Positions 10,948 through 15,240 of a stretch of 64,000 nucleotides of DNA are shown here, in pieces. The notes under the pieces are model-generated. The model saw nothing but the letters and a program-made list of their open reading frames with translations, made no database searches and had not been told where the DNA came from. Position 1 is the stretch's first letter. Every line of letters starts with the position of its first letter. This DNA comes from Maricaulis salignorans (GTDB lineage Bacteria > Pseudomonadota > Alphaproteobacteria > Caulobacterales > Maricaulaceae): positions 1 through 64,000 of the forward strand of contig NZ_FNHG01000017.1 in the NCBI RefSeq assembly GCF_900103475.1, read 5' to 3'. The position numbers were made by a program, and so were the translations under genes.

Positions 10948-11232
10948 TCAATCGGCTTCAGGGAAGAGGCGATTGCCCTGCAGAATGCGTTCGATGCGCA
11001 TGACACCATCGGCGATACGATAGAAAATCAGGTATTGGCCATGCGGCTGGCCGCGCAACCCCTCGCCCAGTTCGGGCCGGAGGGGAGCCGCTTCCGGGAA
11101 GGCCGATAGTCGGGCGCAAGCGCTCCGAAGCTCTGCGATAAAACTCATCGCTCTCAGCGGATTGTCGAGCGCGACATAGTCGCCGATTTCCTCGAGGTCC
11201 GCCACGGCCCTATCCGAGAAGACCAGTTTCAC
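10948..11232 (-). CDS. parE: ParE/RelE-type toxin
   Basis: This 94-residue protein belongs to the ParE/RelE toxin superfamily. The start KLVFSDRAVADLEEIGDYVA, the middle FPEAAPLRPELGEGLRG and the end YLIFYRIADGVMRIERILQGNR follow the family pattern (short strand, two helices, then a curved sheet). The C-terminus agrees better with ParE (gyrase poison) than with mRNA-cutting RelE, but that is inference. It overlaps the antitoxin gene by 4 bases (ATGA), the usual antitoxin-first arrangement. Confidence 0.88.
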   Translation of the reverse strand: MKLVFSDRAVADLEEIGDYVALDNPLRAMSFIAELRSACARLSAFPEAAPLRPELGEGLRGQPHGQYLIFYRIADGVMRIERILQGNRLFPEAD

Positions 11233-11498
11233 AGCAAACCCTGATCCTTGGCCATCTGCTCATACTTGGCCGTGAGCCGTTCAAACACCTCCTCGACAGG
11301 TATCCCCGGCCCACTCTCTGACCCCAGCCGCACCGCCTCGCGCAATTCCTCCAGCTCGGAGAGAAATTTCGCCTCTCTTTCCTCGACCATGCGCAACCCG
11401 TCGCGCAGGATTTCGCTCTTGGAATTATAGCGGCCGGATTTGACCAGCTCGGCCATCAGAGCTTCAAAACGCGGACCGAGAGAATAGCTGCTGGGCAT
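11229..11498 (-). CDS. parD: ParD-type antitoxin
   Basis: This 89-residue antitoxin has a ribbon-helix-helix DNA-binding domain (residues 5-45: SLGPRFEALMAELVKSGRYN then SKSEILRDGLRMVEE) and a helical, acidic tail that should wrap the toxin. I placed the start at 11498 because the ribbon strand begins directly after it; the longer frame runs into the polA promoter. It is translated just before parE with a 4-base overlap. A perfect palindrome 25 bases upstream is the probable autoregulatory operator. Confidence 0.88.
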   Translation of the reverse strand: MPSSYSLGPRFEALMAELVKSGRYNSKSEILRDGLRMVEEREAKFLSELEELREAVRLGSESGPGIPVEEVFERLTAKYEQMAKDQGLL

Positions 11499-14468: not shown

Positions 14469-14669
14469 TTGTCATCCCTGACGGGTGCCCCGCGCATGCG
14501 GGGCGCAGATCAGGGACCCAGACGCCTGACGTTGATCGCTTCAAGTATACGGCGCGACACAATCTCCCCGCCCCGGCGACACACACAGAGCCCGGCCTCA
14601 GAAACCTGAGCGTCTGGGTCCCCGATCTGCGCCCCCGACCAAGTCGGGGGCATCCGTCGGGGATGACAA
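14469..14669. repeat. 201-bp inverted-repeat element, copy 1
   Basis: The element begins TTGTCATCCC and ends GGGATGACAA, so its tips are inverted repeats. Inside are long partly complementary arms: the left contains GCAGATCAGGGACCCAGACGC and the right GCGTCTGGGTCCCCGATCTGC. The left arm has a hairpin CCCCGC-GCAT-GCGGGG (14488-14503) and the right arm has CCCCCGAC-CAA-GTCGGGGG. A second copy of exactly the same length lies at 15040-15240. It resembles REP/BIME or MITE-type non-coding elements. Confidence 0.85.
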
Positions 14670-14681
14670 CGGGTGGTGAAT

Positions 14682-15020
14682 TTACCAGTTACGGAGGTGC
14701 AGCGGCGCGAGACCGGCCGGCTCGGTCCCACCGATACTGGCAAACAGATCGATCCAGTCCGGGTTCTCACGTTCGATCATCGTCGTCTTCCAGTCACGCC
14801 GCCAGCGCTTGATGCGTTTTTCCCGCGTGATCGCCACGTTGATATCCTCATGGGCTTCCCACCAGACAAGCCGTTCCACCCGGTATTTTTTGGTGAAACC
14901 GGGCACCTGAGCCGTTTTGTGTTCGAACACTTGCCGCACCAGATTATTCGTGACGCCACAATAGAGCGTGCCATGCCGACCCGAGGCGAGCAGATAGACG
15001 AAGTAGAGTATATTACAATT
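14682..15020 (-). pseudogene. GIY-YIG endonuclease-like frame lacking a normal start codon
   Basis: This minus-strand frame encodes a small GIY-YIG nuclease-like protein (UPF0213 style). Visible parts are YFVYLLASGRHGTLYCGVTN (the GIY and YIG strands as VYL and YCG), LVRQVFEHK with the catalytic-type Arg, GFTKKYRVERLVWWE with the Glu, and REKRIKRWRRDWK near the end. An in-frame TAA (15021-15023) precedes it and no ATG, GTG or TTG occurs before the domain begins. The first GTG, at 14939, would remove the GIY and YIG strands. The position where a Met is expected reads ATA. It is either a start-lost pseudogene or uses a non-standard start. It fits exactly between two copies of an inverted-repeat element. 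Confidence 0.7.
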
Positions 15021-15039
15021 TTAGCGGGAATAGCAATTT

Positions 15040-15240
15040 TTGTCATCCCTGACGAATACCCCGCGAATGCGGGGTGCAGATCAGGGACCCAGACGCCCGA
15101 CATTGATCGCTTGAAGCACAAGGCCCGACACAATCTCGCCGACCCAGCGGCAAGCGCGGCGGCCCGCGTGAGAAACCTGAGCGTCTGGGTCCCCGATCTG
15201 CGCCCCCGATCAAGTCGGGGGCATCCGTCGGGGATGACAA
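15040..15240. repeat. 201-bp inverted-repeat element, copy 2
   Basis: This element has the same length, the same ends (TTGTCATCCC / GGGATGACAA) and the same orientation as the copy at 14469-14669. The outer roughly 55-65 bases on each side are nearly identical, while the middle is diverged. Its left hairpin is CCCCGC-GAAT-GCGGGG. The next pair outward is A-T here and G-C in copy 1, a compensatory change that keeps the stem. Confidence 0.85.

What the first reader, a model, noticed from the sequence alone, without database searches (positions are those of the whole stretch)
14469..15240. Twin 201-bp inverted-repeat elements enclosing a start-less GIY-YIG nuclease frame
Two copies of identical length with TTGTCATCCC/GGGATGACAA tips, same orientation, leave a space that is filled almost exactly by a GIY-YIG nuclease frame. 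Their ends are conserved, the centres are diverged, and one hairpin pair changed G-C to A-T together, which suggests selection for structure. This looks like a non-coding element family that might be mobilised or processed by a GIY-YIG enzyme, a parallel to REP elements with RAYT transposases. I state this as a hypothesis.
Basis: partly seen in the sequence, partly recalled or inferred. Interest (0 to 1): 0.75.

Follow-up and report, generated by a model that had tools for sequence, protein, structure and literature searches.

The report
DNA hairpin repeats partnered with nucleases
A widespread family of short palindromic DNA repeats, whose spreading enzyme has been unknown, is found again and again wrapped around one particular small DNA-cutting enzyme gene (a GIY-YIG nuclease), which makes that enzyme the best candidate for the missing mover of these repeats; the copy in this window is a decayed example.

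Summary
In detail: two 201-bp inverted-repeat elements (14469-14669, 15040-15240; 87% identical) enclose a start-less GIY-YIG frame on the minus strand. Each arm is an enlarged, TGTC-tagged relative of the 'CGTC' REPs of Di Nocera 2013, which reportedly "apparently lack a dedicated transposase". A covariance model of simple CGTC REPs picks out exactly the four arms in this 64-kb window.

The proposed link holds far beyond this genome. In 80 loci of the same family, canonical CGTC REPs occur at about 2 per kb in the 250 bp on either side of the gene, against 0.02 per kb elsewhere. In 89 genomes across the phylum, 48 loci carry them. RAYT and ParE control genes have none. REP type follows the nuclease tree, not the host, and cognate REPs are more numerous in genomes holding the matching nuclease. 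Whole REP-nuclease-REP units appear as insertions between sufB and sufC.

The window's copy is probably dead: no ATG, and the catalytic Arg is Gln. I infer that REP-GIY-YIG-REP is a minimal mobile unit working like REP/RAYT with an unrelated nuclease. Partnership is well supported; cleavage and transposition are untested. I found no paper making the link (preprints not searched).

The parts
14469..14669 (.). Element A: 201-bp inverted-repeat (REP dimer), TTGTCATCCC...GGGATGACAA
   Evidence: arms match REP model R1 at 14470-14520(+) and 14615-14668(-), E 1.6e-4 and 5.6e-5
15040..15240 (.). Element B: second 201-bp copy, same orientation, 87% identical to A
   Evidence: arms at 15041-15091(+) and 15186-15239(-)
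14470..14520 (+). Left arm of A: TGTC tag, 7-bp outer stem enclosing a 7-bp inner hairpin, CCCA tail
   Evidence: covariation on both stems, R1 match
14615..14668 (-). Right arm of A: the same design with a CCCCCGAC/GTCGGGGG inner hairpin
15041..15091 (+). Left arm of B; its tip supplies the -35 box of the nuclease gene on the other strand
15186..15239 (-). Right arm of B
14682..15014 (-). GIY-YIG nuclease frame (P0001, 110 aa plus stop), start codon lost; frame opens after an in-frame TAA at 15021-15023
14931..14933 (-). Codon of Gln28, where 167 of 169 homologues have the catalytic Arg: this copy is predicted to be inactive
15018..15046 (-). Promoter-like pair: -35 ATGACA (15041-15046, in the tip of element B), 17-bp spacer, -10 TAAAAT (15018-15023)
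   Evidence: in relatives ATGACA-17-TATAAT

Best explanation
The two elements are dimers of an enlarged CGTC/TGTC-type REP hairpin, and the frame between them is a decayed copy of the nuclease that is the dedicated partner of this class of repeat. Shown here: across the Proteobacteria, small single-domain GIY-YIG genes are framed by such REPs, most often with the tags facing outwards; REP type follows nuclease clade; the whole unit occurs as an insertion absent from close relatives. Inferred: the unit REP-(GIY-YIG)-REP is a minimal mobile element (about 360 bp in its simplest form). The enzyme recognises the REP hairpin, as a cruciform or as a single-stranded hairpin during replication, nicks or cuts next to the GTC tag, and lets the unit, and in trans the far more numerous REP dimers without a gene, be copied or moved to new sites with the help of host repair. 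In the window's genus the REP tip also provides the -35 box of the nuclease gene with a 17-bp spacer, so binding to its own REP would repress its own gene. In this window the enzyme is probably dead (no ATG, catalytic Arg to Gln), so the dispersed elements here are likely relics.
For: Association: detector 'tag + perfect stem of 7 or more + loop 3-6 + CCA tail' gives 2.38/kb upstream and 1.96/kb downstream (250 bp) against 0.020/kb beyond 1 kb, 80 loci; 39 of 80 loci against 0.62 expected by random placement, maximum 4 in 2000. The same detector, unchanged, on 89 loci from 89 genomes across the phylum: 48 loci, 1.7 and 2.7/kb against about 0.06/kb. Controls in the same genomes: RAYT-type Y1_Tnp 0 of 18, ParE 0 of 28. 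Co-evolution: REP loop class needs 13 changes on the nuclease tree against 30.2 shuffled; within one genus different nuclease clades carry different REPs, and one REP class recurs across host families. Dosage: CTTGA-type REPs number 5-28 in six genomes with the cognate nuclease, 0-9 in twelve without (p = 0.0012); more REPs in genomes with a GIY-YIG (median 18 against 4, p = 1e-4). Mobility of the unit: A. lipoferum carries dimer-gene-dimer between sufB and sufC; three relatives at 95-96% identity have a short gap and no REP in the surrounding 50 kb; Shinella PSBB067 has an independent unit with another REP type in the same interval. At the window's polA site relatives have one dimer and no gene. 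Minimal 360-bp units. Catalytic residues conserved in 166-168 of 169 homologues, window copy excepted.
Against: No cleavage, binding or transposition has been tested. No target-site duplication or exact insertion boundary could be defined. About half of the GIY-YIG loci (82 of 169) lack a canonical REP within 300 bp; some have non-canonical hairpins, but 11 show nothing recognisable. Some genomes carry REPs with no nuclease, and this genome has 42 matches to the simple REP model with no intact nuclease of this subfamily. REP dimers have a fixed spacing but unrelated spacers, so they are not simple recent deletion derivatives of the unit.
Confidence: 0.75

Rival explanations
1. REP-targeted homing: the nuclease gene is a free-standing homing-type gene that cuts resident REPs and is copied into them by repair, so the REPs are its landing sites and spread independently of it.
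For: At the window's polA site relatives G067, G062, G066 and G078 have a single dimer without a gene, the empty site expected; GIY-YIG nucleases include homing enzymes (PMC1564403); the empty site in S. meliloti is itself a short REP-like palindrome.
Against: In A. lipoferum the unit brought REPs on both sides into an interval where three close relatives have none, in a 50-kb stretch without other REPs. REP copy number rises with the cognate nuclease.
Confidence: 0.25
2. Hitch-hiking in neutral DNA: REPs accumulate around any small dispensable gene, because insertions there do no harm.
For: REPs are known to be intergenic (PMC3733652); GIY-YIG genes look dispensable and decay.
Against: ParE and RAYT genes, also small and accessory, have 0 of 28 and 0 of 18 in the same genomes; only 1 of 30 DUF559 loci has a CGTC REP nearby, but these have their own palindrome; REP type tracks nuclease clade.
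Confidence: 0.04
3. Regulatory role only: the REPs are promoter or terminator parts of the nuclease gene, kept for expression and not for mobility.
For: The element tip forms a -35 box with 17-bp spacing to TATAAT in most loci of the window's clade; REPs often sit downstream of genes (PMC3733652).
Against: It does not explain REPs on both sides in symmetric, tags-outward order, their many dispersed copies, or polymorphic insertion of the whole unit.
Confidence: 0.08

Closest known systems
REP / RAYT (REPtrons, REPINs; Bertels 2011 PMC3116915, Nunvar 2010 PMC2817692, Di Nocera 2013 PMC3733652)
   Same: Single or few enzyme genes per genome framed by the palindromes, many gene-less dimers dispersed elsewhere, enzyme clade and palindrome type linked.
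   Different: Enzyme is a GIY-YIG nuclease, not an HUH tyrosine transposase; tag is CGTC/TGTC/CCTC, not GTAG. RAYT-type genes in the same genomes are not flanked by these REPs, as Di Nocera reported for CGTC REPs.
CGTC-tagged REPs (Di Nocera et al. 2013, PMC3733652), including neisserial dRS3 and rickettsial RPE-4/RPE-6
   Same: TGTC tag (a listed variant), stem, CCA tail, dimers; simple CGTC REPs flank about half of the nuclease loci found here, and dRS3-type repeats flank the gene in N. gonorrhoeae.
   Different: Window arms have a second hairpin in place of the 4-5 nt loop. The 2013 paper reports no dedicated enzyme.
UPF0213 / YhbQ-type GIY-YIG proteins and SLX1
   Same: Nearest solved structures by sequence: 1zg2 (E 4.5e-8), 1ywl (5.6e-5), then UvrC and SLX1 weakly.
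   Different: No palindromic partner is known to me for these; the YhbQ-like gene and UvrC-like gene of the own genome have no REPs nearby.
MITEs and their parent insertion sequences
   Same: Short inverted-repeat elements without a gene, plus a rarer unit of the same ends with a gene.
   Different: No transposase, no target-site duplication found; ends are hairpins with an unpaired tag.

Membership tests
CGTC-tagged REPs | Terminal tag CGTC, or TGTC/CCTC variant | tested here: met
   TGTC at all four arm tips
CGTC-tagged REPs | Unpaired CCA tail | tested here: met
   CCCA after the outer stem in all four arms
CGTC-tagged REPs | 8-9 bp stem with a 4-5 nt loop | tested here: not met
   Outer stem of 7 bp encloses a second hairpin; the arms are therefore called an enlarged relative and not a canonical member. 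Model R1, built from simple REPs, still finds all four arms and nothing else significant in 64 kb. Canonical stems and loops are met at many other nuclease loci.
CGTC-tagged REPs | Dispersed, multicopy, mostly as symmetric dimers | tested here: met
   About 12 elements in the own genome
REP/RAYT system | HUH (Y1) tyrosine transposase between the REPs | tested here: not met
   Protein is GIY-YIG; Y1 genes in these genomes lack flanking REPs
REP/RAYT system | Enzyme gene flanked by the repeat | tested here: met
GIY-YIG superfamily | Pfam PF01541 above cut-off | tested here: met
   44.4 bits against 22.6
GIY-YIG superfamily (active enzyme) | Catalytic Tyr, Arg, Glu, Asn | tested here: not met
   Window copy has Gln for Arg28 and no start codon; 167 of 169 homologues keep Arg
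MITE | Target-site duplication | tested here: inconclusive
   Empty sites exist but junctions could not be placed to the base
Mobile unit | Presence/absence at one site between close relatives | tested here: met
   A. lipoferum against A. ramasamyi, A. oryzae, B510
Nuclease acts on the REP | Binding or cleavage of the hairpin | not testable with these tools
   needs protein and DNA

The most novel reading that the evidence does not exclude
A previously unrecognised class of minimal mobile element: a 340-370 bp (or larger, dimer-flanked) unit that encodes only a roughly 95-residue GIY-YIG nuclease between two REP hairpins, and that has generated and maintained the CGTC super-family of REPs, dRS3 included, by trans-mobilisation, without any classical transposase. 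A second nuclease family, DUF559, may do the same with another palindrome, which would make nuclease-driven REPs a general principle.
Probability: 0.5. Interest if true: 0.93.

Novelty: new variant of a known kind. Interest (0 to 1): 0.83.

Why it matters
CGTC-type REPs are widespread small repeats, most of them in Alphaproteobacteria and also in Neisseria and Rickettsia; the paper that defined them left the enzyme as an open question (PMC3733652). A specific, testable enzyme family is now named, with clade-matched substrates, empty sites and a defined dead copy. If the enzyme moves REPs, it would be one of the smallest self-encoded mobile units known, based on a hydrolytic nuclease and not on a transposase, and it would show that REP-type mobility has arisen more than once with unrelated enzymes.

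Tried and rejected
Rfam: only sub-threshold plant/animal microRNA matches to the long hairpin, chance. NCBIfam, PADLOC, PHROGs: no convincing family. A looser hairpin detector (one mismatch, no tag) has an 18% background and was not used for the claim. Search for target-site duplications in Azospirillum, Shinella and Sinorhizobium: insertions clear, junctions not exact. Idea that dimers are deletion derivatives of the unit: spacers are unrelated, not supported in simple form. Structure prediction was not run: the family assignment was already clear by sequence.

Full report
What is in the window. Two 201-bp palindromic elements lie in the same orientation between polA and a CPBP-protease-like gene, at 14469-14669 and 15040-15240. 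They are 87% identical, with the arms conserved and the centre diverged. Each arm has the order TTGTC, a 7-bp outer stem, a 7-bp inner hairpin, the closing outer stem, and CCCA. Across 27 arms from this genome and its genus 99.2% of cells are paired and 45 cells carry changes on both sides, against a mean of 13.9 in shuffles; sliding one strand by 1-3 columns drops pairing to 28-55%. About a dozen such elements are dispersed in the 3.1-Mb genome.

The frame between them. The minus-strand frame 14682-15014 is a GIY-YIG domain. In the closest relatives the gene starts with ATG after ...GGGATGACAG-(17)-TATAATTGCATGT. The window copy has lost the ATG and the small dyad around the -10 box, and has Gln where 167 of 169 homologues have the catalytic Arg (that this position, the eighth after Tyr-x-Gly, is the catalytic Arg of UvrC and I-TevI is own knowledge). 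It is therefore most likely a dead copy. One relative (L048) also lacks an ATG at the expected place. In most loci of this clade the tip of the upstream element reads ATGACA exactly 17 bp before TATAAT or a near match.

Is the neighbourhood meaningful? I collected 80 loci of homologues from 137 genomes of the same family with 8 kb on each side. The eight-letter tip motif occurs at 3.2 per kb within 250 bp on either side and at about 0.17 per kb elsewhere. Reading the flanks showed that many loci carry simpler hairpins that fit a published description: CGTC-tagged REPs, with CGTC/TGTC/CCTC tag, 8-9 bp stem, 4-5 nt loop, CCA tail, mostly as dimers, for which the authors report that they 'apparently lack a dedicated transposase' (PMC3733652). 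A detector written from that description gives 2.38 and 1.96 per kb next to the gene and 0.020 per kb farther away. Thirty-nine of 80 loci have one within 300 bp; random placement in the same loci gives 0.62. Genes for RAYT-type Y1 transposases (18 loci) and ParE toxins (28 loci) from the same genomes have none. The detector was then applied unchanged to 89 loci from 89 genomes spread over the phylum: 48 are positive, 30 of them on both sides. Stem and loop lengths, which the detector does not fix, come out mostly at 8/4, 7/4, 9/5 and 8/5, close to the published values.

Named examples. N. gonorrhoeae has the gene among dRS3-type repeats; A. lipoferum, S. meliloti, Rhizobium sp. CIAT894 and Photobacterium show CGTC REPs next to it; Planktothrix has a different TGTC-tipped repeat on both sides; Novosphingobium pNL2 shows no canonical REP but an imperfect one.

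Are the window's arms related to these REPs? A covariance model of 42 simple REPs finds all four arms with a loop insertion, at E 5.6e-5 to 1.6e-4, and nothing else significant in 64 kb. Because the loop length is a defining feature and is not met, I call them enlarged relatives and not canonical members.

Co-evolution. On the nuclease tree the REP loop class needs 13 changes, shuffled labels 30.2. In genus g18 three nuclease clades carry three loop classes; in g15 two clades carry two. Thus REP type follows the enzyme and not the host. In g18, copies of the CTTGA-type REP number 5, 6, 11, 24, 27 and 28 in the six genomes with the cognate nuclease (70% identity or more) and 0 to 9 in the twelve others (p = 0.0012), and in these six the REPs sit directly around that gene. 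Over the family, genomes with a GIY-YIG have more REPs.

Does it move? In A. lipoferum 4B a REP dimer, the gene and another REP dimer lie between sufB and sufC; A. ramasamyi, A. oryzae and Azospirillum sp. B510, 95-96% identical there, have a short gap and no REP, and the 50-kb surroundings of all four contain no other canonical REP. Shinella PSBB067 has an unrelated unit with one REP of another class on each side in the same interval. In Sinorhizobium sp. C101 against S. meliloti (95% identity) another unit is present against a site that holds only a short fused palindrome. At the window's own site relatives have one dimer and no gene. The simplest units are about 360 bp, TCGTC-REP, some 20 bp, gene, some 20 bp, inverted REP, GACGA. 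Exact junctions and target duplications could not be fixed.

Interpretation. What is shown is a tight, two-sided, clade-specific and phylum-wide partnership, and insertion of the whole unit. What is inferred is the enzymology: recognition and cutting of the hairpin by the GIY-YIG enzyme, trans-mobilisation of gene-less dimers, and self-repression through the REP-borne -35 box. It works like REP/RAYT but is not a member, since the enzyme is not an HUH transposase and the tag is not GTAG. The nearest solved proteins are UPF0213 members, then UvrC and SLX1, a structure-specific nuclease family, which fits hairpin or cruciform substrates.

Novelty. Searches of the open library found no paper linking GIY-YIG enzymes with REPs; in the GIY-YIG survey of 2006 and the REP survey of 2025 the terms searched for show no such link. 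Preprints and most subscription papers could not be searched, so priority is not certain.

A second system may exist: DUF559 nuclease genes in the same genomes are flanked by another palindrome (CCTCTCCC...GGGAGAGG with CCCCTCA/TGAGGGG ends) at 2.33 against 0.067 per kb. This was found at the end and only partly followed.

Noticed in passing
L330:1036-1446 and L358-L387 (DUF559 loci of the window's family): DUF559 (Vsr-like nuclease) genes are flanked by a different palindrome (CCTCTCCC...GGGAGAGG, ends CCCCTCA/TGAGGGG): 17 of 25 loci, 2.33/kb near against 0.067/kb far. Possibly a second nuclease-repeat partnership.
   Followed up: partly
L318, L329, L330: The sufB-sufC interval holds three different small nuclease genes with their own palindromes in A. 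lipoferum, Shinella and S. parapaucimobilis: a recurrent landing place inside an operon.
   Followed up: partly
L322:2241-2990 (Planktothrix plasmid): A cyanobacterial GIY-YIG gene between MmeI and drmA is flanked by TGTCATTCTGAGTGAAACGAAGAATCTC...AGGATGACA repeats: the pairing may extend beyond Proteobacteria with another repeat.
   Followed up: no
L317 (N. gonorrhoeae): GIY-YIG gene embedded in dRS3-type repeats; it is unannotated in that record.
   Followed up: partly
L338:1060-1096: The empty site in S. meliloti is CCTCACCCCTGTG-AGAGA-CACGGGAATGAGG, i.e. the outer halves of two REPs fused; a similar 58-bp fused palindrome is at G000:C25:141943-142000. It could be an excision footprint.
   Followed up: no
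L342-L351: REP dimers of one class keep a fixed spacing of 57-61 bp although their spacers are unrelated, as if the distance, not the sequence, is under selection.
   Followed up: no
window genome G000: 42 matches to the simple CGTC REP model although no intact nuclease of this subfamily is present: relics, or mobilised by something else.
   Followed up: no
window 10948-11400: RelE/ParE-type toxin gene with a ParD-like partner on the minus strand, upstream of polA.
   Followed up: no
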